Source of the DNA: Catenulispora sp. EB89
GTDB taxonomy: Bacteria; Actinomycetota; Actinomycetes; Streptomycetales; Catenulisporaceae
Reading direction: 5' to 3'
DNA: 64,000 nucleotides
NCBI RefSeq assembly: GCF_041261445.1
Contig: NZ_JBGCCU010000003.1
Span: 310,001 to 374,000 of the forward strand
Shown here in pieces: positions 33,541-56,427 of the stretch. Position 1 is the first letter of the stretch. Every line of letters begins with the position of its first letter. Under the pieces are notes generated by a model. That model made no database searches, was not told the DNA's origin, and saw only the letters and a list, made by a program, of their open reading frames with translations. Made by a program: the position numbers and the translations under genes.

Positions 33541-36500
33541 ATGGACCACCAGGACCCCTCAAACCTGCGTGAGGAAGTACAAAAGCTGCTGCCCCGAGCG
33601 GTGGCGTTGGTCGCCGTGGGGCCTTCGGCGGCACCGCCGTCCGCCCCCGACCTCGACCGGATGATCGAGGAGGCCTCCGAGCTCGAAGCGCGCGCGGGCA
33701 CCTGCCTCGCCGACGACGACGCGTCGCTGGGCACGCTGCGAGTGGCGTTGGGCACGCTGTACGCGTTCCGGGGCAACCGCTTCGGATGGACGGACGCGCA
33801 TCGGGCCCAGGCCCTGCGCTGTTTCCGAGCCGCGCGCGCCGGCGGCCACCTGACCGCCGTGGCCAATCTGGAGGCGATGCTGCTGTTCGTGGTGATGCTC
33901 GTGCCGGCGAAGGTGGCTGATTTCGGGCCGGACGTGACCGGCAAGCTGGGCTCGATGCTGGCTCTGATCCGGGAGATGCAGGAGAGCGGGCCGATCATCG
34001 CCGACCTCCACGAGTTGCGCGAGCTCATCGAGGAGATCGTCGCCGCTCACCCGGACGATCCGCGTGCCGCCAAGTTGAAGGCCTTCAGCGTGACGCTGAA
34101 CATCTGGTTGCGGCTGATGCGGGATCCCTCGAACGTCACGACGGCCGAGATGCGCGGACACGTCGAAGATCTGCCCGTCCAGCCGACCGGCCAGATCGGG
34201 GCGCTCCTGGGCGAGCTGATGAAGCAGGCTGAGAACCTTGAGCGGCGCCAAGATCCTGAGGTACCGAGTCTGCCGGCGGCCGCGGAGACGGCGCTGGCTG
34301 CCGACCAGGCCTTGCCCTGGGACGACCTGACCATATTGATCGAGATGTGCGTGCCCGGGGCACTCGATCGGGCCGAGTTCCAGACACTGATCAGCAGCTA
34401 TGAGGCCGAGGGCACGAGCCGGAGTCTGGGGATCGCCGCGTTCGGCCGGCTCGCCATGGCCGTCCGCACGAATGATCCCCAGGAAGTGGATCGGGCCCTG
34501 CGGAACCTGCGGGAGGTGATGAACAGTCCGGACGCCGGTGAGATGGCCTGGCTCCTCACCTCGGTCTATCCCAGCCTGCTGTCATGGTCGGCGTCCTCCC
34601 ACGGCAACAGGCAGGACGAGGCGAAGGCCTTGGGGCTGTTTCAGGGCGACGGGCTTCAAACGCCGGATCCGGAGCTCGACGAGATCGGTCTGGTGAGCGG
34701 AAACCTCGGGCAAAGTCTGCGAATCTCCCAAGCCATCGAGGCCGAGGACGAATCAGCCCTGGCCGGTCTCATCGCAGAGTTCGCCCAAGCCGGTCCGACT
34801 CCGGATGCCTTCGCCGAGTGGCAGTTTCTCCAACCGATGCAACAGGCGCTGGCGAAGCTTGCGTTGGCGGTGCGCCGTCACGACGGGGACATGGCTCGCG
34901 AGGCGTACGCGCATCTCCAGGTCGCGCGCGAGAAGCCGATGCCGGAGGCGGTACGACCGCTCATGGAAAGCCTCGCGTCCTCGGCGCACATGATCGTCGG
35001 GGCGCTCGAGAATCAGCCGGTGGAGGTCGGGAAGGCTGTCGAGAGCGCGCGCGACCTGCTGATGACAGACCTGGGCCCCTACGACGGGGCTGTCCAGACC
35101 CGGATGCTTCTGGCCTCCGGGCTGATGGCGCAGTACCTCCTGCTCAGCGACGGTCCCGCCAGGGCAAAGTTCCTCGGTGAGGCGATCGATGCCCTCGAAC
35201 AGGCCAAGGACCTGCTCACCGAGCGCACCGGCACGCAGACCGCGAGCCGCGTCCTGTGGAGCCTGGCGGAGGCGCTGCGGAGTCGGCGCGACGCCGCGCG
35301 GCGCGACAACCGCCGGGCGGTGGCGCTGACGCGGGAGTCGCTGGAGCTGGTGGCCGGGGACGTGCTGTTGCAACTCGGGGCCGAGCACGGGTTGCAGACG
35401 GCGCGGACCGGCGCTCTTCGTGGGTTGCGAGCCGCCGGCTGGGCGCTGGAGGAGTACCGCGTCGAGGACGCGATCAGGGTGCTGGAGCTGGGACGAGGCC
35501 TCGTCCTGCGCGCCACGGCGACCGCCGGGACCGTGCCGGACCGGCTGCGTGCGGTCCATGAGGTGGAGCTCGCTGAGCAGTGGGAGCGCTCAAGTGCGGG
35601 TTCTGGGAAGGATGCCGGCCGGGTCGGCGAAGTCGGCGGGAACGGCGAGGCGGTGTCGGACGCAGCGGTGCCCGGTGCGGACGCCGCGCAGTTCAACTTG
35701 CCCAGCGATCTGAGGCGTCGCGCGCTGGAAGCCTTACGCGCGCCGCGTACGGCTGCTTCGGATGCCGCATCGGGACCGGGCTCGGACTCCCAGCCGCAGC
35801 GCGATCTGCTGGTCGTGCCGACGCTGGCGCAGATCGTCGGACACCTGGATCGGGCCGGTCTGGATGCCCTGGTCTACCTGCTGCCCGGTACCGACGACAC
35901 GGCCGGCAAGGTCCTGATGGTCCTCCGGGACGGCGCCACTCGGGAGTTGCCGCTCACCAGCCTGGGGAAGGTGGACGACTACCTCGACCAGTCGGCCCGG
36001 CGGTATCAGCGGTTGCGGAGCCAGGAACGTCAGGAACGTCAGGAACGTCAGGAACCGACGCGGGATCTCGAGCCCGAAACGCGCTGGGAGCTCTCGTTGG
36101 ACGAGCTCTGCGCCTGGGCCGGGACCGCGGTGATGAACCGGGTCATCGCGGCGTTGCCTTTCGTGCCCACGCCGGAAGCCCCCGGCCGTGTCGTGCTCAT
36201 CCCCTGCGGCCGGCTCGGTCTGGTGCCCTGGCACGCGGCGCTGGTCGCCCCCAGGCCGTCGACGGCGGGGCTGTCCCGGCCGCCGCGGGCGTGCGATGTG
36301 CTCGTCGTGTCGTATGCGGCGTCGGCGGATGAGCTGGTGCGCAGTCTTTCCAGGCGCAGGACGCCGTATGCCACGGATCCGGTCCTGGTCGTGGACCCCA
36401 GCAGGACCCTGCGTTACGCCGAGGAGGAGGCCGTCACGCTGCGTCGGACCTACCTACCCGCGGCGCGGCTCATGGGGTCGGTGAAGGGCCAGGAGGTCGA

Positions 36501-37095
36501 GGCGGCGGGGACACCCGAGCAGGTGCAGGCGGCGCTCACCGGGGACGGCGGCCGGGAGCCGGCGTCGATGGTGCAGATCATCGCGCACGGCACGGCGAGT
36601 TCGCGGCCGACGGCCTCGCGGCTTCTGCTGGCGCGGCCGGATGGGGCGGAGGAAGAGTCCGAAGACGACGGCGGCCCCGAATACCTCACGGTGGCCGAGA
36701 TCGTGGACGCCTCGCGGCCCGGCTCGCGAGACCGGTTCTCCTCGCTGGTCATCCTCGACTGCTGCGAGACCGACCTGAGCAGCCGCGACCACGACGAGGC
36801 GCTGACCCTCACCACGGCGTTCGTGGCGCGCGGCGCGACCGACGTGATCGGCTCCCGGTGGGCCGTCGACGACTGGGCGACCGCGGTCTGCATGGTCGTC
36901 TTCCACCACTATCTCGCCGGCGGCGGCCGTACTCCGGCCGAAGCCCTGCGGGCAGCCCAGCGCTGGATGCTGGACGCCGACCGGGAGCCGATTCCGGCGG
37001 TGAGCGAGCATCTGCTCCAGGAGATGCAGACGCCGTTGGACGACGTCTCGAAGTGGGCTCCGTTCATCCACCAGGGCAACGCAGGGCTTTCATAA
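33541..37095 (+). CDS. CHAT-domain protease 1 with long helical-repeat N-terminus
   Basis: The 1184-residue protein has a mainly alpha-helical N-terminal part (1-850) that looks like TPR-type repeats, and a C-terminal CHAT domain (about 855-1180), a caspase-HetF-related cysteine peptidase fold. The His of the dyad is H1016 in QIIAHGTA; the Cys is C1075 in LDCCETD, followed by the TTAFVARGATDVIGSRW strand and FHHYL helix typical of CHAT domains. A short ERQ repeat (about 823-833) interrupts the domain start. It is the first gene of the cluster, has its own terminator, and is preceded by GAGGAC and the shared motif. Substrate unknown; a signal-gated protease effector is inferred. Confidence 0.9.
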   Translation: MDHQDPSNLREEVQKLLPRAVALVAVGPSAAPPSAPDLDRMIEEASELEARAGTCLADDDASLGTLRVALGTLYAFRGNRFGWTDAHRAQALRCFRAARAGGHLTAVANLEAMLLFVVMLVPAKVADFGPDVTGKLGSMLALIREMQESGPIIADLHELRELIEEIVAAHPDDPRAAKLKAFSVTLNIWLRLMRDPSNVTTAEMRGHVEDLPVQPTGQIGALLGELMKQAENLERRQDPEVPSLPAAAETALAADQALPWDDLTILIEMCVPGALDRAEFQTLISSYEAEGTSRSLGIAAFGRLAMAVRTNDPQEVDRALRNLREVMNSPDAGEMAWLLTSVYPSLLSWSASSHGNRQDEAKALGLFQGDGLQTPDPELDEIGLVSGNLGQSLRISQAIEAEDESALAGLIAEFAQAGPTPDAFAEWQFLQPMQQALAKLALAVRRHDGDMAREAYAHLQVAREKPMPEAVRPLMESLASSAHMIVGALENQPVEVGKAVESARDLLMTDLGPYDGAVQTRMLLASGLMAQYLLLSDGPARAKFLGEAIDALEQAKDLLTERTGTQTASRVLWSLAEALRSRRDAARRDNRRAVALTRESLELVAGDVLLQLGAEHGLQTARTGALRGLRAAGWALEEYRVEDAIRVLELGRGLVLRATATAGTVPDRLRAVHEVELAEQWERSSAGSGKDAGRVGEVGGNGEAVSDAAVPGADAAQFNLPSDLRRRALEALRAPRTAASDAASGPGSDSQPQRDLLVVPTLAQIVGHLDRAGLDALVYLLPGTDDTAGKVLMVLRDGATRELPLTSLGKVDDYLDQSARRYQRLRSQERQERQERQEPTRDLEPETRWELSLDELCAWAGTAVMNRVIAALPFVPTPEAPGRVVLIPCGRLGLVPWHAALVAPRPSTAGLSRPPRACDVLVVSYAASADELVRSLSRRRTPYATDPVLVVDPSRTLRYAEEEAVTLRRTYLPAARLMGSVKGQEVEAAGTPEQVQAALTGDGGREPASMVQIIAHGTASSRPTASRLLLARPDGAEEESEDDGGPEYLTVAEIVDASRPGSRDRFSSLVILDCCETDLSSRDHDEALTLTTAFVARGATDVIGSRWAVDDWATAVCMVVFHHYLAGGGRTPAEALRAAQRWMLDADREPIPAVSEHLLQEMQTPLDDVSKWAPFIHQGNAGLS

Positions 37096-37169: not shown

Positions 37170-37184
37170 GTGCCGCCCCTCCTC

Positions 37185-37260: not shown

Positions 37261-38514
37261 ATGAGTTCTGGAGGAATCCTCATCGCGCCGCCGGCCGTGG
37301 CCGCCGCGGCGGCAGCAGCCACGATGCTGGCCGCGGGTGCAGCCGCGGTGCTGGTGGCACGTGCGGCGAACATGGCCGCCGAGGCCGCGTTCCGTGCGGT
37401 CGGCGACTATGGCGCCCGGCCGGAGGACCTGGCGGCCGCGCCGTCCGATGCCGAGATCATGGCGCGGATCTGGGGTGTGGTGGCGGCGAACGCGGTCGAG
37501 CTGAACAGCCGTATCAGTGCCCTGACGGCGCGGGCCGCCAAGGCCGGCGTCGCGGTCGACGTCCCGGCGCCGGTGAGCATCTCCGGCTGCACCGCGGCCG
37601 AGGCGTCGCGGCGTGCCGAGCTGACGGCGCAGCTGGTGGCCCGGGCGCAGGCGGCGGTGCGGGTCGCGGTGGCCGACGACGAGGCCAGGCACCTGGGCGC
37701 GTATCTGCCGCAGTACGTCATGGCCCGGCCGGATGCCGCCAAGGCTCTGAAGGAATACCAGCAGATACTGCAGAAACGGGGCGAGCAAGGCGAGTCGGCC
37801 GCGGCCGGCAGCGAGACGCCGATGAAGCCGACGCCGGCCGACGTCAAGGCGGTCCTGGCGACCCTGGACCCGGACGCCGACGAGCGCGAGCACCTGGAAG
37901 TGCTGGCCGCCGCGGCATGTGTCGCGCAGGACGACGCCCGCGAGGCGCGGTCGTACCTGGAGGGTCTGCGGGCCAAGGTGAGCGCGGTGAACGCGGCGGC
38001 CGCCCGGCGCCGGCTGACCGGGCAGTGGCTGGTGGTGCTGGAGGAGCAGTCGGCACTGGGCGATCCCCCGACGCCGTTCTCCGGCACGGCCGCGAAGCTG
38101 CGGGCCGTGGTGGCCGGCGACCGCGACCTGAGCGCGGATCTGCGGGCCGAGGGCGCCGAGGCCGCCGAGTGGGCCGCCGCGCAGGCGCGCTGCCGCTTCG
38201 TCAAGGGTCTGATGCGCTCGTGCCTGACCGATCTGGGCTACTCGCTGGAACCGGAGTTCGACGTGCGGCACTCGGGCGAGCTGCGGCTGGCCCGGCCGGA
38301 CTGGGGCTCCGAGCACTCGGCGGAGATCTGGATCGACAGCCACGGCACCGTACACGGCCGGGTCGTGCGCGCGCACGGCGTGGAGGGCGACGAAGCCGCG
38401 GCCCGGGAGCGGGAGCGCTGCGTCGGCTTCAACGCCGACATCCGGACGCTGGGCAGCCGGCTCGGCGCGGCCGTGGTCACCGACGAGGGCTACGTGCCGC
38501 AGGGGACATCATGA
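37261..38514 (+). CDS. Hypothetical Ala-rich protein of the CHAT/rSAM cluster (417 aa)
   Basis: No family is recognised. The N-terminus has a strongly hydrophobic Ala-rich segment (about 9-37) that could be a membrane helix. The middle (about 60-330) is predicted helical and Ala/Glu/Arg-rich, consistent with coiled coil. The C-terminal 90 residues look like a small alpha/beta domain (EIWIDSHGTVHGRVVRAHG). GGGAGGG precedes ATG 37261, with two copies of the cluster motif upstream. It sits between CHAT protein 1 and the first radical-SAM-type protein and could be a target or scaffold of either; that is inference from position. Confidence 0.75.
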   Translation: MSSGGILIAPPAVAAAAAAATMLAAGAAAVLVARAANMAAEAAFRAVGDYGARPEDLAAAPSDAEIMARIWGVVAANAVELNSRISALTARAAKAGVAVDVPAPVSISGCTAAEASRRAELTAQLVARAQAAVRVAVADDEARHLGAYLPQYVMARPDAAKALKEYQQILQKRGEQGESAAAGSETPMKPTPADVKAVLATLDPDADEREHLEVLAAAACVAQDDAREARSYLEGLRAKVSAVNAAAARRRLTGQWLVVLEEQSALGDPPTPFSGTAAKLRAVVAGDRDLSADLRAEGAEAAEWAAAQARCRFVKGLMRSCLTDLGYSLEPEFDVRHSGELRLARPDWGSEHSAEIWIDSHGTVHGRVVRAHGVEGDEAAARERERCVGFNADIRTLGSRLGAAVVTDEGYVPQGTS

Positions 38515-38531
38515 TGCGCTCCGTCGAGGCC

Positions 38532-38540
38532 GTCCGTCAG
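38532..38540 (+). promoter_or_regulatory. Cluster motif GTCCGTCAG, copy 4
   Basis: Located in the 157-bp gap before the first radical-SAM-type gene, 131 bases upstream of its ATG. Confidence 0.5.
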
Positions 38541-38671: not shown

Positions 38672-39406
38672 ATGAGCGCCCCGACACTCCGGATCAGCCG
38701 GAGCCACTATCCCGTCACCGCCCTCGGCCCCGGAATCCGCCTCGGGGTATGGGTGCAGGGATGCCCGCTGGCCTGCCACGGCTGCATGTCCCGGGACACC
38801 TGGGACGCCGCCGGCGGCGTCGACGTCGCGGTCGAGGATCTGATCGACCGCTGGCGGACCGCGCTGGCCGACGGGGCCACCGGGCTGACCGTCAGCGGCG
38901 GCGAACCGCTGGAGCAGGCCGGGCCGCTCGCGGAGTTCCTGCGGCGCGCGGCCGAGGTCCGCGCTGCGGTCCGTGCCGACGGCGCGGTCGCTGCGGCAGC
39001 CGGCTACGGCGAGGCCGACATCCTGCTGTACACCGGGTACGAGCTCGCCGAGCTCGACGAGGAGCAGCTGGCCGCGACGCGGTACGCGGACGCGCTGATC
39101 AGCGGCCGTTATGAGGCCGGGCAGCCGACGGATCTGGTGTGGCGCGGCTCCGCGAACCAGCGGCTGAGGCCGCTCACCGAGCTGGGGCTCCGGCGCTACG
39201 CGGTTTCCGTGGACAAGCATGTGCCCGCTCCCCCGCTGCAACTGCGCGTGGACGAATCAGGGGTCTGGGTCATCGGGGTGCCTCGGCCCGGCACCCTGAG
39301 CCGTATCGACCGGACGCTGCGGCAGGCCGGGCTGGTCGTGGACGGGGTCACCTGGCGGGCTTCCGGCAAGAAAGAAAGCGAGGTGCTGCCATGTCCGAAC
39401 GACTGA
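38672..39406 (+). CDS. 4Fe-4S single-cluster radical-SAM-type protein 1 (activase-like)
   Basis: The 244-residue protein has the radical SAM cluster motif CX3CX2C at C31, C35 and C38 (GCPLACHGC), then a SAM-binding SGGEP motif, a LLYTGYELAELD strand-helix, an ISGRYE segment and WRGSANQR. The size and order match the short activating-enzyme group (NrdG/PflA-like) that uses one 4Fe-4S cluster and SAM. No glycyl-radical enzyme is encoded nearby, so the target may be a cluster protein. The 3' end overlaps the next gene by 16 bp. A paralogue with the same cysteine positions ends the cluster at 55801. Confidence 0.9.
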   Translation: MSAPTLRISRSHYPVTALGPGIRLGVWVQGCPLACHGCMSRDTWDAAGGVDVAVEDLIDRWRTALADGATGLTVSGGEPLEQAGPLAEFLRRAAEVRAAVRADGAVAAAAGYGEADILLYTGYELAELDEEQLAATRYADALISGRYEAGQPTDLVWRGSANQRLRPLTELGLRRYAVSVDKHVPAPPLQLRVDESGVWVIGVPRPGTLSRIDRTLRQAGLVVDGVTWRASGKKESEVLPCPND

Positions 39407-42400
39407 CGCGCTTCGAGGGATTCCGGGACTCGGTGCGCGCCCGAATGACGGATGCGCTCGCGCAGGAGTTGAACGTGCTGTGGAACCGGGCCGCCGCGGC
39501 CGGGGTCGAGCCCGAGCGGATGGCTGCGGCGTTGGAGACCTGGCGCGGCCGGATGCAACGGGCCGCGCACGGCAGGGTCGGTGGGGCGGCGACGTCGTTC
39601 GTCAGCACGTCGTACGTCAGCACGCCGTTCGTCAGTCGGACCGCCGAACTCGGGCAGCTCGTCGATCTGGTGCGCCAGGCCGGATCGGGGCGGGCCGGCA
39701 CGGCGATGATCGCCGGCGAGGCGGGTGTCGGGAAGACGCGGTTGATCGCCGAGTTCACCGAGCAGGCTCGCCACGACCTCAACGCGCATGTGTTGTCGGG
39801 TTCGTGCGTCAAGCTCGGCGACGGGGTCCTGCCGTACGCGCCGCTGGTCGAGTCGCTGCGTGCGCTGCTCTGGGAGAAGGGTCCTGAGATGGTGCGGCAG
39901 GTGGCCGGGCCGGCGTGGAACGATCTGGCCGATCTGGTCTCGGATGTCGCAGGGGGCGGTTTCGGGAGCGGTGGCGGTGGCTCGGCTGGTGCCGCCGGGC
40001 CGGACGTGGGAGTGCCGGGACGGTTGCGGATCTTCAACGCCGTGCGGCGGATGCTGGAACGGCTCGGCACGACCGCGCCGGTGGTGCTGGTCTTCGAGGA
40101 CCTGCACTGGGCCGACCAGTCGACGCTGGATCTGGTCTCGTATCTGACGCACACGATGGCCGACGAACGGACGCTGTTGGCGTGCAGCCACCGGTCCGCG
40201 CTGCCGGCGGGGCACCGGCTGCGGAAGATGCTGGCCGAGCCGGGATTCGGGCCGCGGGTGACGAGTATGGAGTTGCCGCGCTTCACCGAGGCGGAGCTGA
40301 CCTTGTTCCTCGACGAGTTCGCGCCGCTGGATCGGGACGCGACGCGGCGGTACTACGAGGTCTGCGACGGCAACGCGTTCTTCGCTGAGCAGTTGGCGGT
40401 GTCCGGGGTGTTGAGCGGGCCGGCCGACTCGGTCGAGGAGCCCGTGCCGCGGTCCGTCGAGGAGTTGGTGCTGGCTCGGGTTTCCGCGCTCAGTGCGGCG
40501 GCTCGGCGCGTCCTGCGGATCGCGTCGGCGGCACGTCGGGTCGACGATCGGTTGCTGGAGGCGGTGAGCGGGCTGGAGCCCGATGTCCTCGACGAGGCAC
40601 TGAACGAGTGCCAGGACCAGGGCATGCTGGTTCTGGACGCGGTCGAGGGCCGGTACGTCGTGCCGCACGCGCTGCTCGGCTCGGCGGTCTACAAGGCGAT
40701 GGCTCCGCGAGAGCGCCGGTGTCTGCATGGTGAGGTCGCTCAGGCGCTGGCTGCGGGCGCCGGGGGTGCTTTCGCCAGGGACTGGGGCGTCGCGGTGGAG
40801 GTGGCGCACCACTGGCATCGGGCGCGGCGTCGTCCGGAGGCGCTGGTCGCGGCCGTGCGGGCCGGGGAGACGACGATGCGGGTGCGCGGCTTCCCCGAGG
40901 CGGTGGGCCACTATCGACGGGCACTGACTTTGTGGGAGCAGGTGGCCGAGCCGGAGGAGTCGGCGCACTGTTCCCGCGAGCAGATCCTGCTCGCATTGGC
41001 GGACGCGGCCCGGTGGGCCGGGCACGCCGGGCAGGCCGTCGCGCATGTGCAGGAGGCGGTCGACGCCGCGGGACCGCATGCGAACCCGCGGCGCTTGGGC
41101 GAGTTGTACGAGCGGCTGGGCAGCTACCAGCGGGAGGCGCGGGTGGTGCCCGAGGACGGCCACGCGTACGCCGAGGCCGTGCGGCTGTTGGCGCAGGCCG
41201 CGCCGGACGAGGCGGTGTACGCCCGGGCGTTGTCCGGGCTGGCGATGGCCGAGGTGCGGGCGGGGGCGTACGACACGGCGCTGGACCGTGCGCAGGAGGC
41301 GGTGGCGCTGGCGCACGACTGCGGCGACGCCGCCGCGGAGAACAAGGCGCTCAACGCGGCCGGCGTGGCGCTGGCCGTCAGCGGCCGGACGGCGGAGAGC
41401 GAGCCGGTGCTGCGGCAGGCGCTGGACGTCGCGGACCGCGCCGACCGCCTAGAGGACGTGCTGCGCACGTACAGCAACCTCGCGCGAACGCTGGCCTTCA
41501 CCGGCGACACGGCCGGCTCGGCCGACCAGGCCCGCGCCGGCCTCCGACGCGCCCAGGCGCTGGGGCTGGCGGGCACGCGCCTCGGCGGCGCACTGGCCGG
41601 CAACGCCGGCTCGTCGCTGATGCTGCTGGGGCACTGGAACGAGGCCACGGACCTGCTGAACGAGGCGCTGGCGGACCGCCCGCACGCCGAGAACACCGCC
41701 CGCCTACGGCTGACCCTGGCCGGCATCGAGGTGGAACGCGGCCGGTTCGCCGACGCGGAGACCCTGATCGACGAACTGCGCGGACAGCACAGCGGCGACC
41801 CGTGGCTCACCGCGGCACTGCACGCCTGCGAGGCGGAGCTCTGGTGCTGGCGCGGGCAACCGGTCCGGGCCTACGGGGCGGCGTGCCGGGGTCTGGAGGG
41901 CACCGACAACGCACTGATGCGCCTCCGCCTGTGCGCGGTGGGGCTCCGGGCAGCGGCCGACCACCGCCTGCGGCACTCGAGCGGGATTCCGGCGGCGGGC
42001 GGGGACCTGGTCGACATCGCCACGGAGGAGGCGGCGACGCTGCCGGAGACCGCGGTGGTGCAGCTGCTGCGGCGACAGTGCGAGGCCGAGCATCGGAGGG
42101 CGTCGGCGGCGGACTCGCCGGAGGACTGGGCCGCGGTCGCCGCGGGTTGGGACGGGGTGGAGCGGCCGTATCCGGCGGCGTACGCGCGATGGCGGGAGGC
42201 AACTGCGGCAGTGCGCGATGGCGCGGCGGGAGCGGTGGCGACGGCGACTCAGGCCGCTGAGGCCGCGGCTCGGCTCGGGGCGGAGCCTTTGCGGGCTGAG
42301 GCGGCGCGGTTGGTCGCGCGGTTGGGGGGCGGGGGCACGGCGGGCGGCCTGACCGGCGATATCGCAGCCGAGAGCAAGACAATCGGCATCGCAGTGGACG

Positions 42401-47697: not shown

Positions 47698-50277
47698 ATG
47701 CCTGGAAGAGCACTGCTGATCGGCGGCGCCCTCGAACAACTCACCGGTGTCGACAACGACATCGCGGCGATGAAGGAAGCGCTGGAGAACCGCGGGCTGA
47801 CCGTGGACCCGGAGTTCGTCCTCACCGGGAAGAACGCGACTCGGGCCGCGATCCTGAAGGCCTACGAGCACCTGATCTCCCTGGCCGTGCCCGGGGAACC
47901 GTCAGTGGTCTACTACAGCGGGCACGGCGGCCGGGCGCTGCCGCCGCCGGCCGCGGCTTCCACGGCGCCCGACTCCGAGCCGGAGCCCATGGACCTGCAG
48001 TTCATCGTCCCCTACGACTTCGACCAGTCCGGGCCGGGCGATTTCCGCGGGATCACGTCGGTGGAGCTGTCGGTTCTGCAGAGCCGGCTGACCGAGCGGA
48101 CCGACAACGTGGTGTCGATCTTCGACTGCTGTCATTCCAGCCGCATGTCGCGTATCGAGTTCAAGCCGAAGCGCACCGGCCACGTGACCAGCTACGAGGA
48201 GCTGAGCTCGCACATCGCGCGGATGGAAGCCGAGGGGCTGCGCTCGGGCCTCGCGCGCTCGGCCGGGAACCACCAAGCCGTGCGGATCGTGGCCTGCGCG
48301 CCGGAACAGCTGGCGTACGAGTACCCCGGTGTCGGCGGCAAGCGGATCGGCATCATGACCGAAGCCCTCACGATGGCGCTGCACGCCGTGGGCCGGGAGA
48401 AGGTCACTTGGGCGAGTCTGCTCGACGGCATCCGTTTCCGGGTCTCCAAACTGGTCTTCGACCAGCGTCCCGAAGCCGAGGGCCCGTCCCGCCGACTGCT
48501 GTTCGAGACGACCGAGGGCGACCACCTCGACTCGCTCCCGGTGCAGGACATCGGCGGCAGCCGTCTCCAGCTCGATTGCGCGCCGCTGCTCGGCGTGCGC
48601 CTGGGCGACGTCTTCACGATCGTGTCGCCGTCCGAGGACACGATCGGCGAGCTGACGGTGGACGCGGTCGGGCCGCTGTTCGCCCAGGGGCCGCTGACCT
48701 CGGCGAGCGGGGCCACGCCGGTGCCGACGGGCTCGCGGGCGGTGCGGGTGAAGGCGTCGGCGCCCAAACTCGTGGTGTCGATACCCACCGACGCCACGCA
48801 CAGTACGGAACTGCGGAGCGCGGTGCAGGACTCCGTCCTGCTCCGGGTCGCCGAGGGCGACGAGCCCTTCGCCGCCCAGCTGCGGACCGACGAGTACGGC
48901 GGCGTGACGGTGGCCGACAGGCTGGGTGCGCTGCACGAGCCGCGGACCGGCACCGCGGCCGACCGCGCCGAGGCGGTCAGCGATTTGGAACGGCTGGCCC
49001 GGGCCACGGCGCTGCGCACCCTGGACGCCGACTCCAGCTGGGCCCTCGGTGCGAAGGTCACGTACGAGTGGGGCCTCGTGGAGGACGGGCAGCGCCGGCC
49101 GTTGCCCGAGGCCGGCGCGGTGGTCCGGGCAGGTCAGAAGGTGTACATCAGTGTCCGCACCCAGAACGACGCTCCCGTGTACGTCACGCTGGTGGACATC
49201 GGTATCACCGGGAGCATCACGGTCCTGACGAATATGGCGCCGTCCGGCTACCGCCTGTCGCTCAACGATCAGCAGGAGTACGTGTTCGGCTACGAACTCG
49301 TGCCGCGCGCCCTCGAAGGAAAGGCCCTGGGCTGGCCGAGCGATCTGGCCCTGGTGAACTCCCGGACCGAGACGGTACTCGCCTTCGTGACGGAGCAGCC
49401 CCAGGATTTCAGTGCCCTGAAACAGCATGGAATCGTCACCACGCGGCGGCCCGGCGAGCTGATCTCGCCGCTGACGGCGGTGGTGGACCAGGTCGCCGCC
49501 GGCGGCGACCGGGACCTGCCCCAGGACCGCAGCGTGAGCGGCCGTTACGACGTCCGGAAGATCGACTTCGAGCTCGAACCGGCGTCCGGCCCCGGCTTCC
49601 TGGTCGAGGAGGTGGCGGTCCCGGGGACCGCCGGTGTGACGCCGCGCGGCACGGAGGTCGGCACGGTCAGCCCGGCCGGCCCGAACCTGCCGACCAGCCT
49701 CACCGTGCCGACCGCGGTGGCGGTCCGGCTGGACGAGCTGGTGGTCCACCGCAACCGGGCCCGGTTCGGCGGGGCCGACATCCGGGTCGACGCGATCGTG
49801 CTGACCGGGAGCAAGGACTCGCCGCGGCCCGCGTTCCGGGCGCGGACCCAGCGGTTCTCGCGGATCCGGGACGGCGAGCCGCTGCCGCTGGACCGGATGC
49901 TCGTCTTCCACGGCCCGGTGGTGGACTACCTCGACATCGCGCTGTGGGTGTCGCGGGACAGCGACGGCGCCGTGGACCTCGGCGAGCTGCTGAGCGACGA
50001 GGCCGCCGCCTTCGAGATGCAGGAGGCGCTGGCGAAGGCGGGCGGGGCGATGACCGGCCTGCCCTACGCCGCCGCGGCGGCGGCCATGGTGGGCGTCGGC
50101 GCGATCGTGGTGAATGTCGCCTACCGGCTGCTGCGCGGGACGGTCAGCGACGTCATCGGGCTCTACCGGGGCTCGCGGCTCGCCGGCGAGACGTTCGGCG
50201 TCGGGCGCCACCCCGCCGAGGGCGCGCGGCGGGTCCAGGACTTCTCCCTGGCCTACAGCATCGACGACGTGTCCTGA
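47698..50277 (+). CDS. Caspase-like (peptidase C14) protein
   Basis: The 859-residue protein begins with a caspase/metacaspase-type domain (1-270): ALLIGGALEQLTGVDNDIAAMKEAL, catalytic H76 in YYSGHGG and catalytic Cys C145 in FDCCHSS. A beta-rich region follows (about 280-560), part of which (ALGAKVTYEWG to VFGYELVPR) resembles the DUF4384 fold found with bacterial caspases. A late domain (about 690-800, with DIALWVSRDSDG) and a hydrophobic helix (about 785-805, YAAAAAAMVGVGAIVVNVAY) suggest membrane association at the C-terminus. ATG 47698 follows AAAGGA. Protease effector role inferred from family. Confidence 0.92.
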   Translation: MPGRALLIGGALEQLTGVDNDIAAMKEALENRGLTVDPEFVLTGKNATRAAILKAYEHLISLAVPGEPSVVYYSGHGGRALPPPAAASTAPDSEPEPMDLQFIVPYDFDQSGPGDFRGITSVELSVLQSRLTERTDNVVSIFDCCHSSRMSRIEFKPKRTGHVTSYEELSSHIARMEAEGLRSGLARSAGNHQAVRIVACAPEQLAYEYPGVGGKRIGIMTEALTMALHAVGREKVTWASLLDGIRFRVSKLVFDQRPEAEGPSRRLLFETTEGDHLDSLPVQDIGGSRLQLDCAPLLGVRLGDVFTIVSPSEDTIGELTVDAVGPLFAQGPLTSASGATPVPTGSRAVRVKASAPKLVVSIPTDATHSTELRSAVQDSVLLRVAEGDEPFAAQLRTDEYGGVTVADRLGALHEPRTGTAADRAEAVSDLERLARATALRTLDADSSWALGAKVTYEWGLVEDGQRRPLPEAGAVVRAGQKVYISVRTQNDAPVYVTLVDIGITGSITVLTNMAPSGYRLSLNDQQEYVFGYELVPRALEGKALGWPSDLALVNSRTETVLAFVTEQPQDFSALKQHGIVTTRRPGELISPLTAVVDQVAAGGDRDLPQDRSVSGRYDVRKIDFELEPASGPGFLVEEVAVPGTAGVTPRGTEVGTVSPAGPNLPTSLTVPTAVAVRLDELVVHRNRARFGGADIRVDAIVLTGSKDSPRPAFRARTQRFSRIRDGEPLPLDRMLVFHGPVVDYLDIALWVSRDSDGAVDLGELLSDEAAAFEMQEALAKAGGAMTGLPYAAAAAAMVGVGAIVVNVAYRLLRGTVSDVIGLYRGSRLAGETFGVGRHPAEGARRVQDFSLAYSIDDVS

Positions 50278-50348: not shown

Positions 50349-50594
50349 ATGACCGACAGCAGCACCGACAAGCAGATCACCGTCGACGGCGCCGTGTGGA
50401 TCCTGCCGGAGACACCGGACGCGGCCGACGTCTTCAAGCAGATCGAGGACGCGCTCGACAACGGCACCGTCGCGCGGGTGGCCGTGCTGGACGCGAAGCG
50501 GCGCCGGGTCGAGATCCTGATCAACGGACGCACCGTCACCAGCGTGATCCTGGACGCCTGCGTGGACCCGCGGCCGAGCGAGACCTCCATCTGA
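50349..50594 (+). CDS. Small conserved-looking protein of the CHAT/caspase cluster (81 aa)
   Basis: The 81-residue protein is compact and predicted alpha/beta: a VDGAVWILPE strand, a DVFKQIEDALDNG helix and two strands (VAVLDAKRRRVEI and GRTVTSVILDA) ending PRPSETSI. It resembles small uncharacterised actinobacterial proteins found beside CHAT and caspase genes, as far as I recall. GGAAGGAAACC precedes the ATG. It sits between the caspase-like protein and CHAT protein 2 under its own motif copy, so it may be an inhibitor, adaptor or substrate; this is positional inference. Confidence 0.75.
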   Translation: MTDSSTDKQITVDGAVWILPETPDAADVFKQIEDALDNGTVARVAVLDAKRRRVEILINGRTVTSVILDACVDPRPSETSI

Positions 50595-50753: not shown

Positions 50754-53450
50754 ATGTCGATCGATCCGGACAGATACCTGGTCTACGCGGCCATCGCCGG
50801 CGAGGGTGACTGGAACCTGGCGGTGGAGGCGCTGCACCGGCTCGGCGGGGACGCCGGGGACACCGGCATGCGAGCGCGGCTGGCGGTCAAGCTGATGGCG
50901 CTGCAGCTCGGTCAGGGACTCGACCCGGCCACGATGCTGGCGCGCGGCGGGGCCCAGGCCGCGCAGCTCGAGCGACTGCTGGTCATCGCCGACCAGGACC
51001 CGCCCCGGGACCCGGGCTGGCCGCGGCTGCGGATCATGGCGCGCCTGAACATCCTGATGGCCGCGGTGTCAGGGGACTCGCATCTGCCGCCGGCCCAGGC
51101 CCTGGCCGAACTCGAGGAGCTGGCGGCCTCCGCCGGTGCCGACGACCCGATGATGGCCAAGCTGCTCGACGTCGCGCGCCAGATGCTGTCGGCCTCGGTC
51201 TCCTTCGAAGAGGGCGACGCCTCGATGCCGAACCGGCTTGTCGAGAACGCGCAGGCGTTCCGCGACTTCCTTCCCGGCAACAGCGAAGCGGCGCTGTTGG
51301 CCGATCTGATCGCCGGCGCCGCAGAGGTCCAGCGCATCCAGCAGTCCGGTGGCGATCCCGTGCCCGCCATCCAGAGATTCCAAGCGATGGTCGCGCAGCT
51401 TCCGCCGGAGCACCCGATCCGCAAGGGCCTGCAGGAATCGATGGCCGCGATGGACCCGCTCAAGGCGATGCTCGACGACGCGCGGGGAGCCACCCCGCAG
51501 TCGACCGAGGCGAACTTCGCGGCCGCCGAGGAACTCGCCGCGCGGACCGACGCCGAGCCGTCCATCCGCGCCCTGCGCCACGCGACGGCCGGCGGCTTGG
51601 CGCTGCGCGGGTGGGAGGAGACCGACGTCGACCGGGTCGGCGCCGGCGTCGAGCACTACCGGATGGCCGTGGAACTGTCGCCGAACCCGACCGGGGAGCG
51701 AATAGCCCACCTCGGCGGCTACGCCATGGCGCTGATCCGGCGCAACGAGCTGACCAACTCCGTGAGCGACCTGGACATCGCCCACGAAACCCTGACCGAG
51801 GCCCGGGCCCTGGCCGGCGGCCCCCGGCATCCGCAGTGGTCGCACATCAACGACATGTTCACCCGGATCCAGCGGCGCCTCGGAGACACCGCGGCCGGAC
51901 AGGGCGCCCTGGACTCGCTGCGCGGCACCGCGTGGCAGGTGCTGCTGCAGGACGGCGTCAGCGCGGCGAAGAGCGCCGCGAGCGACGCCGCGGAGTTCGC
52001 GGCCAACGCGGCCCGGATGTGCCTGCAGGAGGGCAAGGTCAGCGACGCCGTCCAGTCCCTGGACGGGGGCCGCGGCCTGATGCTGTTCGCCGCGACCGAG
52101 TTCCGGGACGTGACGGGGCGTCTGCAGGAGGCCGGGCGGCCCGATCTGGCCGAGCGCTGGAGCGCGGCCACCGCCGAGGGCGCGCCGGAGCTGATGCCGG
52201 CCGGCCTGCGCGGCGAGGTCCTGCGGGCGCTGGACCAGGACGCGCGCGTGCTCGATCCGCCGAGCGTCGCCGAGATCCGGTACGCGCTGCACGATCTGGA
52301 CGCCGACGCCCTGGTCTACCTCCTGCAGGCGGCGGGCAGCCAGCCCGGCTGGGCGGTCGTGGTGCCGGCACAAGGCGCGCTCACCGCGCTGAGTCTGGCG
52401 AACCTGCAGGTCGGGCCGAACACCGACGCCGAGCGGTACCTGACGTCCCTGGCGACCCGCGATCTCAAGCCGGAGGCCCGCGAGCCCGAGGACTCGGACA
52501 GCGTGGACAAGCTGTGCGACTGGGCATGGCGGGCGGCCATGGGGCCGATCATCGAGCAGTTCCTGCCGACCCTGCCGGCCCCGGAGAACGGCCGGCCGCA
52601 TCGGCTGGTGCTGGTGCCGATGGGCCAGCTCGCGCTGGTCCCGTGGCAGGCGGCACGCAGCCGCGACGGCCGCTACGCGCTGGAGTTCGCGGCCTTCTCC
52701 CAGGCCGCCTCGGCGCGCATGCTGTGCCGGTCGGCGGACGCCGAGCCGGTCCGCACGCTGCCGGTCGGGCTCGTCGTCGGCGACCCGGACACCGCCGGGG
52801 AGGCCGCGCCGCTGCCCGCGGCGCGCCTGGAGGCGTTCGCCGTCCACCAGACCTTCTACCGGGCCGGCCGCTACGTCGGCCGGCGCGCCGACGGCAAGCC
52901 GAGTCCGGCCGGCGCCGGGACCGCGCAGGAGGTCCGCGACTGGCTCGCGGCCACCCGCCCCGGCGCGGTCCTGCACCTGGCCTGCCATGGCGTCATCGAC
53001 TCCGTCGCGCAAGAGGCCACCTCGTATCTGATGCTGGCCGACAACAGCCGGGTGACGGCCCAGGAGATCATCGAGCTGATGGGGCGCGGCCCGGACAGCG
53101 GCATCGGGCTGGCGGTCCTGGCGGCCTGCCGGACCGGCCGGTCGATCCACGGCTACGACGAGGCCTACAGCCTGGGCACGGCGTTCCTGGCCGGCGGCGT
53201 CCGCTCGGTGCTCTCCACGCTGTGGGCGGTGCCGGACGAGGAAACCTCGGTGCTGATGTTCATGTTCCACCACTATCTGAGGACTGATTCGCCGGCTCCG
53301 TGGGAAGCGCTGCACAAGGCCCAGTTGTGGATGCTCGACCCCGGACGGCAGCTGCCGGAGTCGATGCCGGGGCCGCTGCGGAAGCGCTACGACGCCGTCC
53401 GCGCGGCCGGGGTCGAGGCCTGGGCCGGTTTCGTGCACTGGGGAAAGTGA
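50754..53450 (+). CDS. CHAT-domain protease 2
   Basis: The 898-residue protein has an N-terminal helical-repeat region (1-560) and a C-terminal CHAT domain (about 570-895). Catalytic H745 is in LHLACHG and C792 in LAACRTG, both in canonical context, followed by GTAFLAGGVRSVLSTLWAVP, MFHHYL and the GFVHWG end typical of CHAT domains. ATG 50754 has a near-consensus AGGAGGTG. The stop is 13 bases before the TTG of CHAT protein 3, so the two are co-translated. The helical region may bind a regulator. Confidence 0.93.
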   Translation: MSIDPDRYLVYAAIAGEGDWNLAVEALHRLGGDAGDTGMRARLAVKLMALQLGQGLDPATMLARGGAQAAQLERLLVIADQDPPRDPGWPRLRIMARLNILMAAVSGDSHLPPAQALAELEELAASAGADDPMMAKLLDVARQMLSASVSFEEGDASMPNRLVENAQAFRDFLPGNSEAALLADLIAGAAEVQRIQQSGGDPVPAIQRFQAMVAQLPPEHPIRKGLQESMAAMDPLKAMLDDARGATPQSTEANFAAAEELAARTDAEPSIRALRHATAGGLALRGWEETDVDRVGAGVEHYRMAVELSPNPTGERIAHLGGYAMALIRRNELTNSVSDLDIAHETLTEARALAGGPRHPQWSHINDMFTRIQRRLGDTAAGQGALDSLRGTAWQVLLQDGVSAAKSAASDAAEFAANAARMCLQEGKVSDAVQSLDGGRGLMLFAATEFRDVTGRLQEAGRPDLAERWSAATAEGAPELMPAGLRGEVLRALDQDARVLDPPSVAEIRYALHDLDADALVYLLQAAGSQPGWAVVVPAQGALTALSLANLQVGPNTDAERYLTSLATRDLKPEAREPEDSDSVDKLCDWAWRAAMGPIIEQFLPTLPAPENGRPHRLVLVPMGQLALVPWQAARSRDGRYALEFAAFSQAASARMLCRSADAEPVRTLPVGLVVGDPDTAGEAAPLPAARLEAFAVHQTFYRAGRYVGRRADGKPSPAGAGTAQEVRDWLAATRPGAVLHLACHGVIDSVAQEATSYLMLADNSRVTAQEIIELMGRGPDSGIGLAVLAACRTGRSIHGYDEAYSLGTAFLAGGVRSVLSTLWAVPDEETSVLMFMFHHYLRTDSPAPWEALHKAQLWMLDPGRQLPESMPGPLRKRYDAVRAAGVEAWAGFVHWGK

Positions 53451-53463
53451 GGAGGAGACTGCG

Positions 53464-55728
53464 TTGGACAACGAGATCACCCGCCTCGAGACGGAACTGG
53501 CGGGGCTGACGGGCAGTGCCCGAGCCCAGACGCTGCTGCGGCTGGGGCAGGCGCACTGGATGCGGTACTGGCGCACCGGGATCGGCTCCGGGGTCGGGCT
53601 CCCCCATCTGGACCGGACGATCACCGCCATGGACGAGGCGCTGGGGTACCTCGAACCCGGGGACGTGCTCCGCGTCCAGGCCGTCTCGATGGTCGGGGTC
53701 TTCCGCTGCATACGGCACTCCGTCCACAACGGCCCGACCGCCGACCGCGACGCGGGCATCCCGCTGATCGAGGAGGCGCTGGCGGCCGGGCCCGGCGTCC
53801 TGCCACCCGCCTCGGCCGACTTCGCGCGCGTCACCCTCGGCGAGGCCTACCTGCGGCGCTCCATGCAGATCATGCAGACGCAAGACGCGATGATGGCGGT
53901 GATGAGCCGCGGTATGCCCCCCGGCACGATCGCGGACATGGAGCGCGCGATCGAGATCCTGCGGGAGGTGACGAACAACTCCACGGCCCCGCAGATGACG
54001 CAGATGGCCGCGAAGATGCTGCGCATGGCCGAGACGATGCACCGGATCTTCACGGCGTTCGGCTCGCCGAACCTGAGCACGCAGGTTCAAGCGATGATGG
54101 GCTCCATGGCCGAGATACAGGAGCTCGTCCGGGAGCTCGAAACGGACGGGTTCGGGATGGGTAGCCACATCACGAACGCTTCGGTCCTCGACACCGAGTG
54201 GACGCAGTACGTCGACACCACGGACATTCCCAGCGCCATGTTCCGGGAGGCGGGATCTGACGCGGGTGGGGATGAGCCGAAGCGGCCTGAGTCCGCGCAG
54301 CCCAAGCCGGCGCAGCCTCAGGCAAAGCAGCCTGAGCCACAGCCGCCGGAGCCGAAACGGCCTCAGCCGGAGCGGCCTGAGTCTGAGCGGCCTGAGTCTG
54401 AGCGGCCTGAGTCGGGGGCGTCCGAGCAGCCGGAACAGCGGGAGCGGCCCGAGCGCGCACGATTCTCGGTGGACGCCGAAGCGATACGGGCCGATCTGCG
54501 CACCCTGATAGGCGCCGCGAGCGCCGGCGACGCCGTGTTCGCGGTCGCCGCCGACCTGCTCCGGGCCGCCGAGCCCCCGGCGTGGGTCGACGAGTTCGTC
54601 GCCTCGGCGGCCGGGGTCGTGCACAGCGTGGAGGCGCCGTCCGGGACCGACCACTTCCTGCTGGCGGTCGCGCTGCACCTGCGGTCGCGCCGGGACGGGG
54701 ACGACGACGGTTGGGGCGACGGCTCCGGTGGCGCCGACGCGGCGGTCAACGGCGATGCGCAGGCGGCCGTCGCGAGCCTCCTGACCGCCGCGCAGACCGT
54801 GCCCGACGAGGATCCGGACGCCATCCCGACGCTGGTCCAGTTGGCGCAGCTGTCCCCCGACGGCGCGCTGAAAGCGCTCGGCTCCCGGCTCGGCGGTCTC
54901 ACGACTCTGCTTCAGTCCGTCGGCGCGGAGGCGGTGGAGCTGCCGGAGCCGACGGATTCGCTGCGCTGGAACGCTGTCGAGAACCGGTTCGAGCCCGCCG
55001 CCGAGCCTTGCGAGGCTCGGACGCTGGTGGTCGTCGACGGCGGCTCCCTGCGGGAGTCCAAGCCGTCGGCGTCCGAAGACGACGTGACGGTCTCCTACGT
55101 CGCGTCGCTGTCACAACTCAGAACCCTGTCGCGGCGCAAGGTCCGTCCGGTCGCGCAGGAGCCCGTCTTCGTCGCGAACCCGCGCGGCGACCGGATGCCG
55201 GCCGCAGTGGAGACGATGCTGCTGCGGCGCAGCTTCTATCCGCACTCCGTCGGGCTCGGCGGCCTCATCGAGGCCGCGGACGGCGCGGGGACGGCGAAGG
55301 AGGTGCGGGCCCGGCTGGAGGCCTCGGTGCTGCACCTGGCGTGCGGGGTGACGGAGTCCGGCGCGTTGGAGCTGGCCGACTCCACCGAACTGGACCTGAC
55401 CGACGTCGAGGTGGAACACGGCGGGGTGACGGTCCTGCCGCCGGATCACTTCCAGCCGTTGGCGGACATCCTGCTCGCAGCAGGGTTCACCGGGGTCGTC
55501 GGGTGGCGGCGGCCGGTGCCGGAGGACTTCGGCGCGGTGGCCTATTTCCTGCTGCACACGGAGCTGGCCGACGTCGGTCGCGCGCCGGCGGCGGCGGTTC
55601 GTGCGGTCCGCGAACAGCTGCGCGCGCCTGATCTCGGCGCGCTGCCGCCGTTGCTGGCGTCGCGGTTCGAGGCGGCGGGTGGTGCGGCCGGGGATGACTG
55701 GACGGCGTTGGTGTACCGGGGTCGGTGA
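53464..55728 (+). CDS. CHAT-like pseudoprotease 3 (catalytic residues lost)
   Basis: The 754-residue protein starts at TTG 53464 behind GGAGGAG. It has a helical region (1-255), a charged Pro/Glu/Arg/Gln linker (about 262-330) with repeats of PESER, and a CHAT-like C-terminal domain (about 500-750). The strand that is LACHG in active CHAT proteins reads LACG here (C627-G628), so the catalytic His is missing; the equivalent of LAAC is replaced by an ILLAAGFTGVVGW segment without Cys. The surrounding fold is conserved, including a FLLHTEL helix. It is probably a regulatory partner of CHAT protein 2. Confidence 0.88.
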   Translation: MDNEITRLETELAGLTGSARAQTLLRLGQAHWMRYWRTGIGSGVGLPHLDRTITAMDEALGYLEPGDVLRVQAVSMVGVFRCIRHSVHNGPTADRDAGIPLIEEALAAGPGVLPPASADFARVTLGEAYLRRSMQIMQTQDAMMAVMSRGMPPGTIADMERAIEILREVTNNSTAPQMTQMAAKMLRMAETMHRIFTAFGSPNLSTQVQAMMGSMAEIQELVRELETDGFGMGSHITNASVLDTEWTQYVDTTDIPSAMFREAGSDAGGDEPKRPESAQPKPAQPQAKQPEPQPPEPKRPQPERPESERPESERPESGASEQPEQRERPERARFSVDAEAIRADLRTLIGAASAGDAVFAVAADLLRAAEPPAWVDEFVASAAGVVHSVEAPSGTDHFLLAVALHLRSRRDGDDDGWGDGSGGADAAVNGDAQAAVASLLTAAQTVPDEDPDAIPTLVQLAQLSPDGALKALGSRLGGLTTLLQSVGAEAVELPEPTDSLRWNAVENRFEPAAEPCEARTLVVVDGGSLRESKPSASEDDVTVSYVASLSQLRTLSRRKVRPVAQEPVFVANPRGDRMPAAVETMLLRRSFYPHSVGLGGLIEAADGAGTAKEVRARLEASVLHLACGVTESGALELADSTELDLTDVEVEHGGVTVLPPDHFQPLADILLAAGFTGVVGWRRPVPEDFGAVAYFLLHTELADVGRAPAAAVRAVREQLRAPDLGALPPLLASRFEAAGGAAGDDWTALVYRGR

Positions 55729-55736
55729 CGCGGCTC

Positions 55737-55744: not shown

Positions 55745-55800
55745 AAGTCCCACACACGAAGCCAGTGCATCGAGTCGCCGTGGAACCCCGGAGGTCTGCC

Positions 55801-56427
55801 GTGAGCGGAACCGAACTGTCCATCAGCCGCTTCGCCAGTCCGGTCCGCACGCTCGGGCCCGGGGTCCGCGCGGTGGTGTGGGTCCGGGGCTGCCCGTTGC
55901 GGTGTCCGGGGTGCATCGCGATCGAGGACCTGGACTTCGACGGCGGGATCCGGACCACGGTCGGGGTGCTGGCCGAGCAGATCAGTGCCCTGCCGGCGGA
56001 GGTCACCGGCGTCACCTTCTCCGGGGGTGAGCCGATGGCGCAGGCCGCGGCGCTGGCCGAGGTGGTGGACGTGATCCGAGCCGGGCGCGACTGGTCGGTG
56101 ATGGCCTACAGCGGATTCACGCTCGAGCACCTGACCCGGCACGGCGACACCGGCCAGCAGGCGCTGCTGGACCGGCTCGACATCCTCGTCGACGGGCCGT
56201 ACGTGCGGGACCGGCATGCCGACCTGGCGTGGCGCGGCTCGGACAACCAGCGGGTGCGCCTGCTCAGCGGTCGGCACGTGCTGCCCGATCCCGACACCTC
56301 CGCCGGGATCGAGTTCCACGTCGAGGCGGACTCCGTGACGTTCGTCGGGGTGCCGCCGGTCCCGGGGTTCCGGCAGTCCTTCGAGGACGCGGTTTCTCGC
56401 GAGGGTGTGGTCCTGAGTCCGGAGTAG
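55801..56427 (+). CDS. 4Fe-4S single-cluster radical-SAM-type protein 2 (activase-like)
   Basis: The 208-residue paralogue of the protein at 38672 has C31, C35 and C38 in GCPLRCPGC at identical positions, then FSGGEPMAQ, AYSGFTLEHL, the LVDGPYV segment and WRGSDNQR. It is shorter by 36 residues, mainly between the SGGEP and Y-x-G-F/Y segments and at the C-terminus. GTG 55801 follows GGAGG. It is the last gene of the plus-strand cluster, converging with the GTPase operon after 52 bp. Substrate unknown. Confidence 0.9.
   Translation: MSGTELSISRFASPVRTLGPGVRAVVWVRGCPLRCPGCIAIEDLDFDGGIRTTVGVLAEQISALPAEVTGVTFSGGEPMAQAAALAEVVDVIRAGRDWSVMAYSGFTLEHLTRHGDTGQQALLDRLDILVDGPYVRDRHADLAWRGSDNQRVRLLSGRHVLPDPDTSAGIEFHVEADSVTFVGVPPVPGFRQSFEDAVSREGVVLSPE

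What the first reader, a model, noticed from the sequence alone, without database searches (positions are those of the whole stretch)
33541..56427. Candidate undescribed conflict or cell-death locus: three CHAT proteins, a caspase, two radical-SAM-type proteins and two LuxR ATPases
CHAT and caspase proteases are established effectors of bacterial suicide or immune systems, usually with one protease and one sensor. Here four protease-fold proteins lie with two single-cluster radical-SAM-type proteins and two large ATP-gated regulators in 23 kb on one strand. The radical-SAM-type genes bracket most of the cluster, at 38.7 and 55.8 kb. I do not know a described system with this set. Post-translational modification by the rSAM proteins coupled to proteolysis is a testable idea.
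Basis: partly seen in the sequence, partly recalled or inferred. Interest (0 to 1): 0.82.

Follow-up and report, generated by a model that had tools for sequence, protein, structure and literature searches.

The report
Conserved bacterial caspase–CHAT protease gene cassette
This stretch of a soil bacterium's genome holds a conserved set of protease and switch genes, probably for sensing trouble and triggering a drastic response; the radical-SAM enzymes beside it look like optional neighbours rather than its heart.

Summary
In detail: 33.5-56.4 kb carries, on one strand, CHAT1, unknown P2, NrdG-like rSAM-A, LuxR-AAA A, a helical protein, LuxR-AAA B, a caspase, CHAT2, CHAT3 and rSAM-B. Corrections: CHAT3 lacks the catalytic His and Cys, as do its four orthologues that keep the domain. 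A conserved 81-aa gene, here SP (50349-50594), was missed. The island continues into a GAP1-N2/DO-GTPase/HSP70 system on the other strand.

Sampling through SP (27 of 300 genomes of one family) shows the unit: LuxR-AAA 27 of 27, caspase 26, helical protein 25, CHAT 19. An rSAM of this family lies within 30 kb in 7 of 27: above chance (0.17 expected), but optional. rSAM-A goes with a kinase-P2-AAA+ module whose AAA+ gene is missing here; rSAM-B and CHAT1 resemble a GAP1/GTPase arrangement in Streptomyces. So the linkage is real outside this genome, but rSAM plus protease is not the defining pair. The searches named below found no description of the cassette. Conflict or cell-death function is inferred, not shown.

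The parts
33541..37095 (+). CHAT1: long N-terminal region plus CHAT protease domain, His and Cys present
   Evidence: PF12770 E 3.4e-32; catalytic motifs; after C. rubra, the best-scoring relatives among the fetched loci lie in Streptomyces rSAM/GAP1 loci
37261..38514 (+). P2: unknown protein, relatives sit in kinase-AAA+-rSAM modules
   Evidence: no Pfam; relatives next to AAA+ and rSAM in C. rubra, G095, G395, G400
38672..39406 (+). rSAM-A: NrdG-like single-cluster radical-SAM protein, CxxxCxxC, no SPASM match
   Evidence: Fer4_12 E 7e-28, Radical_SAM 24.3 bits (cut-off 29.5); NrdG model 87 bits, cut-off 126.1; alignment; overlaps LuxA by 16 bases
39391..42690 (+). LuxA: AAA_16 ATPase, TPR, LuxR HTH
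   Evidence: AAA_16 E 2e-27, GerE E 1e-18; start by comparison with C. rubra
43114..44142 (+). Conserved helical protein (weak resemblance to sigma-factor region 2)
   Evidence: window protein without Pfam or NCBIfam match at E<=0.01; 445 relatives at E<=1e-10, a lower bound; model and structural comparison
44564..47608 (+). LuxB: AAA_16 ATPase, TPR, LuxR HTH; the cassette's own STAND-like ATPase (start uncertain, 44474 or 44564)
   Evidence: AAA_16 E 5e-32, GerE E 9e-13; LuxAAA model matches in 27 of 27 SP loci
47698..50277 (+). Caspase-like protease with long C-terminal region
   Evidence: PF00656 E 6e-16; His and Cys present in all 10 rows aligned, which stand for 9 genes
50349..50594 (+). 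SP: 81-aa conserved small protein, DUF3107-like predicted fold, conserved disordered C-terminal tail
50754..53450 (+). CHAT2: CHAT protease with catalytic His and Cys
   Evidence: PF12770 E 8e-51
53464..55728 (+). CHAT3: CHAT-like protein without catalytic His and Cys (pseudoprotease)
   Evidence: 24.0 bits at the cut-off; motif alignment
55780..56427 (+). rSAM-B: NrdG-like single-cluster radical-SAM protein (start uncertain, 55765-55801)
   Evidence: Fer4_12 E 9e-32; NrdG model 97.5 bits, cut-off 126.1
56480..58099 (-). DO-GTPase2 (neighbouring GAP1 system)
   Evidence: PF19993 E 4e-16
58106..60523 (-). GAP1-N2/M/C protein
   Evidence: PF20013, PF20014, PF20052 over cut-off
60525..62216 (-). 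Second DO-GTPase2 (start overcalled, as the ORF overlaps the next gene)
   Evidence: PF19993 E 2e-9
61748..63451 (-). HSP70-like protein
   Evidence: PF00012 24 bits, cut-off 20.6
63448..64000 (-). AAA+ protein of the rSAM-linked family, continues to 65583 beyond the window
   Evidence: family member in L085 AAA_2 E 2e-48

Best explanation
The locus is a composite actinobacterial island. Its core is a conserved protease cassette: a STAND-like LuxR ATPase, a caspase, a small tailed protein (SP), a helical protein, an active CHAT and a pseudo-CHAT. Two NTPase modules, each with its own NrdG-like rSAM, are docked on either side: a reduced kinase-P2-AAA+ module on the left and a GAP1-N2/DO-GTPase/HSP70 module on the right. 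Likely working (inferred): the NTPase modules and LuxB act as energy-gated sensors; when triggered, caspase and CHAT2 are activated; SP, with an exposed conserved tail, is bound or cut by them; CHAT3 serves as scaffold or substrate-holder; the outcome is a LuxR-driven transcriptional response and/or death of the cell. The rSAMs serve the NTPase modules (perhaps modifying a module protein such as P2), not the protease cassette as such.
For: Cassette conservation and order: LuxAAA 27, caspase 26, helical protein 25, CHAT 19 of 27 SP-anchored loci; LuxAAA-caspase-SP consecutive on one strand in 23 of 27; also in Kribbella, Amycolatopsis and Actinokineospora. Tail motif in 117 of 120 SP relatives, at the very C-terminus in 85. 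Pseudo-CHAT conserved as such in 5 of 5 CHAT3 proteins that keep the domain. rSAM with its own AAA+/kinase/P2 or GAP1 partners. rSAM optional: within 30 kb in 7 of 27. GAP1-N2 systems are described as conflict systems (PMC7159879, abstract and passages).
Against: No experiment; no phage or toxicity data. No CHAT match within 20 kb in 8 of 27 SP loci, two of them (G464, G468) at contig ends. A purely regulatory (developmental) role fits the LuxR ATPase about as well. Cleavage of SP is a guess; its tail might bind rather than be cut. The AAA+ partner of rSAM-A is absent here, so that module may be non-functional in this strain. rSAM and SP occur in the same genome in 18 of 27 SP-positive against 1 of 20 SP-negative genomes, which could mean a closer tie than optional neighbour, but is confounded by genus.
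Confidence: 0.55

Rival explanations
1. rSAM-centred system: the rSAM proteins modify a protein of the locus (SP or a protease) and the modification gates proteolysis.
For: Linkage above chance: 7 of the 18 genomes with both SP and rSAM have them within 30 kb, 0.17 expected; rSAM-A overlaps LuxA by 16 bases and rSAM-B follows CHAT3 by 36-72 bases, so they are probably co-transcribed here; rSAM in 18 of 27 SP-positive against 1 of 20 SP-negative genomes, confounded by genus.
Against: 20 of 27 SP cassettes show no rSAM within 30 kb (some contigs end earlier) and 9 of 27 genomes none at E<=1e-20. 18 of 26 rSAM genomes have no caspase match at E<=1e-15. SP lacks Cys in 109 of 120 relatives, although the window's SP has one.
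Confidence: 0.15
2. A regulatory rather than suicidal system: the cassette is a proteolysis-controlled transcription switch for development or stress, with no cell death.
For: A LuxR-AAA-family ATPase matches in 27 of 27 SP loci (the HTH itself checked by Pfam only in the window and G095); helical protein with weak sigma-region-2 resemblance; every listed relative of SP whose source names an organism is actinobacterial.
Against: Neighbourhood with a GAP1-N2 conflict system and CHAT1; patchy presence (27 of 300 genomes) fits a conflict system better than a core developmental switch.
Confidence: 0.2
3. Chance clustering of unrelated conflict genes in an accessory island, without common function.
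For: The docked modules occur independently of the cassette; a serine recombinase lies at the left edge.
Against: Fixed order LuxAAA-caspase-SP in 23 of 27 loci and recurrence in several families; short gaps between many of the genes in the window.
Confidence: 0.1

Closest known systems
GAP1-N2-type DO-GTPase conflict systems (Kaur et al. 2020, PMC7159879; abstract and passages seen)
   Same: The right-hand neighbour has GAP1-N2/M/C, two DO-GTPases, HSP70 and, past the window, a vWA-like protein; Streptomyces versions carry CHAT1-like and rSAM genes beside it
   Different: 'CHAT' has 0 occurrences in the main text held, and the passages seen name no rSAM with GAP1-N2; the LuxR-AAA/caspase/SP cassette is not part of what I saw there
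EACC1-caspase two-gene system (same paper)
   Same: Caspase followed by a long C-terminal region
   Different: Caspase scores 34.9 bits against the EACC1-caspase model's cut-off of 140; neighbours are LuxR-AAA and SP
FxSxx-COOH / radical-SAM-SPASM peptide systems and FtsH-type systems with rSAM (same paper, passages seen)
   Same: rSAM beside NTPases and a protein with a conserved C-terminal motif
   Different: rSAMs here are NrdG-like without SPASM match; the tail is of the PRPSEMS type, not FxSxx; SP occurs in genomes without such an rSAM
Craspase TPR-CHAT (Csx29)
   Same: Large protein ending in a CHAT protease
   Different: 23 and 28.4 bits against a cut-off of 300; no CRISPR family among the Pfam matches of the 20 window proteins scanned
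Rv3208A / DUF3107 small proteins
   Different: Sequence match weak (22 of 90 members at E<=0.1, best 0.0027, not the window's own SP); the conserved tail lies beyond the matched range (8-71)

Membership tests
GAP1-N2 DO-GTPase system (neighbour module) | GAP1 with N2-type N-terminal domain | tested here: met
   PF20013, PF20014, PF20052 over cut-off
GAP1-N2 DO-GTPase system (neighbour module) | DO-GTPase, one or two copies | tested here: met
   two PF19993 proteins over cut-off
GAP1-N2 DO-GTPase system (neighbour module) | HSP70 theme | tested here: met
   PF00012 24 bits, cut-off 20.6
GAP1-N2 DO-GTPase system (neighbour module) | FNIII-repeat protein | tested here: inconclusive
   no FNIII match in the proteins scanned; not all genes to 70 kb were scanned
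EACC1-caspase system | EACC1-type caspase | tested here: not met
   NF047832 34.9 bits, cut-off 140
EACC1-caspase system | EACC1 gene directly 5' of the caspase | tested here: inconclusive
   5' gene is LuxR-AAA; no EACC1 match seen, but I did not check whether the libraries hold an EACC1 model
CATASP (caspase and TPR associated small protein; full name recalled) | SP matches PF20271 | tested here: not met
   PF20271 searched in 9 cassette genomes at E<=1: no match listed lies at the cassette; none of 90 SP members matched it at E<=0.1 among the families listed
NrdG ribonucleotide reductase activase | NrdG equivalog score | tested here: not met
   TIGR02491 87 and 97.5 bits, cut-off 126.1
FxSxx-COOH rSAM peptide system | rSAM with SPASM domain | tested here: not met
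   Pfam gives only Fer4_12 and Radical_SAM, proteins of 208-244 aa; NCBIfam's StsB SPASM model 19.1 bits, cut-off 625
FxSxx-COOH rSAM peptide system | FxSxx C-terminus | tested here: not met
   117 of 120 SP relatives carry P[RKQ]x(0,2)P[ST][EQ]x[SA] near the end (110 of them exactly P[RK]P[ST][EQ]xS)
Craspase Csx29 | Csx29 model score | tested here: not met
   NF041237 23 and 28.4 bits, cut-off 300
DUF3107 (for SP) | DUF3107 fold and sequence | tested here: inconclusive
Sigma-70 region 2 (for the helical protein) | region 2 fold and profile | tested here: inconclusive

The most novel reading that the evidence does not exclude
A previously undescribed actinobacterial protease-signalling pathway: an ATP-gated LuxR STAND protein, a caspase, an active/pseudo CHAT pair and a small protein whose conserved tail is the shared recognition or cleavage tag, plugged interchangeably into rSAM-bearing AAA+ or GTPase sensor modules, giving a bacterial counterpart of inflammasome-type caspase cascades that also writes a transcriptional output.
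Probability: 0.3. Interest if true: 0.82.

Novelty: new variant of a known kind. Interest (0 to 1): 0.62.

Why it matters
If true, it adds a multi-protease cascade, with a built-in pseudoprotease and a small tailed partner, to the bacterial relatives of caspase-based immunity, and offers a defined substrate candidate (SP) that makes bacterial caspase and CHAT signalling directly testable. It also shows how protease cassettes and NTPase sensor modules are combined as exchangeable units.

Tried and rejected
rSAM as the defining partner of the proteases: rejected as core, kept as docked accessory. SP as an rSAM-modified peptide: not excluded but weakened, since SP occurs in 9 of 27 genomes without an rSAM match and mostly lacks Cys. 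SP as CATASP: PF20271 does not match at these loci. Caspase as EACC1 type: below cut-off. Helical protein as a sigma factor: structural rows suggest it, profiles do not. PADLOC: the caspase hits a caspase model (E 2e-17); the other matches are weak and lie in HTH, TPR or ATPase stretches of the LuxR-AAA proteins. Sequence search of solved structures gave nothing convincing for SP or the helical protein (best E 0.1 and 0.86). SP in the family of G242: 0 of 35 genomes. Helical-protein search over the class: 3 of 394 genomes, the window's own included; rSAM-A search over the class: 29 of 296, own included, many of them weak. Literature: searches listed no paper that describes the cassette by title or opening of the abstract; of the papers I looked into only PMC7159879 (outline, abstract, passages) and PMC8195603 (passages). 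Most subscription journals and the supplements were not available.

Limits of the counts: the 26 genomes were chosen by me from the rSAM loci after I had seen neighbours, so those counts are biased. The 80 loci are the best 80 of 219 that one search confirmed; several are related (three from one C. rubra genome), and some flanks are short. The SP model was built from 7 of the 9 sequences it then found, so only G397 and G409 were new. Of the 20 SP-negative genomes, taken because one search listed them by name, 18 belong to genera without an SP-positive genome. The figures assume random placement and independence. The gene caller used on fetched stretches is a simple GC-position script that misses or misplaces some genes; family matches count from 50 bits. 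The rSAM-within-30-kb count of 7 is 4 within the stretches plus G095, G675 and G538 read from coordinates; for G432 and G464 the rSAM is on another contig and SP near a contig end, so distance is unknown. vWA-like and kinase-like labels of the rSAM-B type module rest on matches below Pfam cut-offs.


Full report
What is there. The ten large genes are real and lie on the + strand. Comparison with Catenulispora rubra DSM 44948, whose contig NODE_119 holds the same locus, suggests the starts: LuxA 39391, caspase 47698, CHAT2 50754. Similarity to C. rubra begins at window base 33523, with only 665 bases of that contig beyond it. To the right the island goes on, on the other strand, with two DO-GTPases, GAP1-N2 and an HSP70-like protein and, past the window, an AAA+ protein, an unknown protein and a vWA-like protein to about 70.0 kb, where an aminotransferase-like gene begins (that last name is my reading of the sequence).

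The proteases. CHAT1, CHAT2 and the caspase keep the catalytic His and Cys (motifs recalled); CHAT3 does not, and neither do its orthologues in C. rubra, G095, G400 and G405. In G395, G396 and G397 the CHAT3-like protein shows no CHAT motif in that alignment. An active/dead CHAT pair next to a caspase is thus a recurring feature, not decay in this strain.

What belongs together, seen from the rSAM. Of 80 rSAM loci from named genomes (the best 80 of 219), 17 have a CHAT domain within the fetched flank of at most 10 kb; by record title 40 of the 80 are actinobacterial and all 17 are among these. CHAT density in 26 rSAM genomes is 160 in about 225 Mb, so about 0.6 of 40 would be expected. Of those 26 genomes, which I picked, 8 hold the caspase and in 7 it lies within about 22 kb of the rSAM; in G409 it does not.

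What belongs together, seen from SP. 27 of 300 genomes of G095's family hold one SP match each, in 8 of 44 genera. Within 20 kb (less at contig ends): LuxR-AAA 27, caspase 26, helical protein 25, CHAT 19, CHAT3-like N-terminus 15, P2 6, AAA+ 5, rSAM 4, GAP1 1 of 27; LuxR-AAA, caspase and SP follow each other on one strand in 23 of 27, and the helical protein comes next in 19. In the whole genomes, 18 of 27 SP-positive ones have an rSAM at E<=1e-20 against 1 of 20 SP-negative ones (confounded by genus), and in 7 it lies within 30 kb of SP, where 0.17 would be expected. So the rSAM is a frequent lodger, not a member of the core.

Where the rSAMs belong. In actinobacteria rSAM-A relatives sit in a module of kinase, P2 or a similar protein and a ClpB-like AAA+ protein, in some loci with an FHA protein. 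C. rubra has that AAA+ gene between P2 and rSAM-A; in the window it is missing (window 38499 to 38538 against L056 5896 to 8040). rSAM-B and CHAT1 have their like in Streptomyces loci; the fullest (L088, L114) read CHAT, vWA-like, kinase-like, rSAM, AAA+, HSP70, GTPase, GAP1, GTPase. A CHAT1-like protein with GAP1 is seen in L088, L097, L103, L114, L116, L119 and the unnamed G089. In C. rubra and the window rSAM-A overlaps LuxA by 16 bases, and rSAM-B follows CHAT3 by 36-72 bases in the window, so co-transcription here is likely; that keeps a functional tie possible. The window's genome has another rSAM-CHAT neighbourhood, at G000:C8 62-71 kb.

How it probably works. Shown: composition, order, conservation, lost catalytic residues of CHAT3, conserved SP tail. 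Inferred: LuxB (AAA_16, TPR, LuxR) and the docked NTPases are ATP- or GTP-gated sensors; triggering activates caspase and CHAT2; SP is bound or cut through its tail; CHAT3 holds or guides substrates; output is transcription and/or death. The conflict reading leans on the GAP1-N2 neighbour, a class described by Kaur et al. 2020 as a conflict system associated with multicellular bacteria (PMC7159879; abstract and passages seen). 'CHAT' has no occurrence in the main text held there; in the passages seen, rSAM appears with FxSxx/SPASM and FtsH-type subsystems.

Novelty. The literature searches named under Tried and rejected listed no paper on this cassette. I rate it a new variant of a known kind: known protease and NTPase folds in an arrangement that I could not find described, plus a small protein family without a Pfam entry of its own in the library used. 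The function is untested.

Noticed in passing
window 38499-38538 against L056 5896-8040: A ClpB-like AAA+ gene present between P2 and rSAM-A in Catenulispora rubra is absent from the window, so the left module is reduced in this strain.
   Followed up: yes
window 29399-30751: A large serine recombinase lies just left of the point (33523) where similarity to the C. rubra contig ends; it may mark an island border.
   Followed up: no
L054 (G000:C8) and L065 (C. rubra): Another locus in the same genome, and one in C. rubra: P2-like protein, AAA+, rSAM, kinase and a very large CHAT protein (1746 aa in L054) on one strand.
   Followed up: partly
L083, L101, L106, L120, L124, L135 and similar loci: Outside actinobacteria relatives of this rSAM sit with an AAA ATPase and a DUF1257-like protein (Pfam match checked in L135 only), in records titled Polyangiaceae, Phycisphaerae, Anaerolineales and Deltaproteobacteria.
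   Followed up: partly
L054 and L062 (c60 proteins): The P2-like proteins beside the rSAM in these two loci carry a Tyr-rich N-terminal motif, GYSYSY, a conceivable rSAM target.
   Followed up: no
window 39391-42690 and 44564-47608: LuxA and LuxB look like a tandem pair in Catenulispora: the C. rubra copy of each matches the window copy of the other at 66-68% DNA identity.
   Followed up: partly
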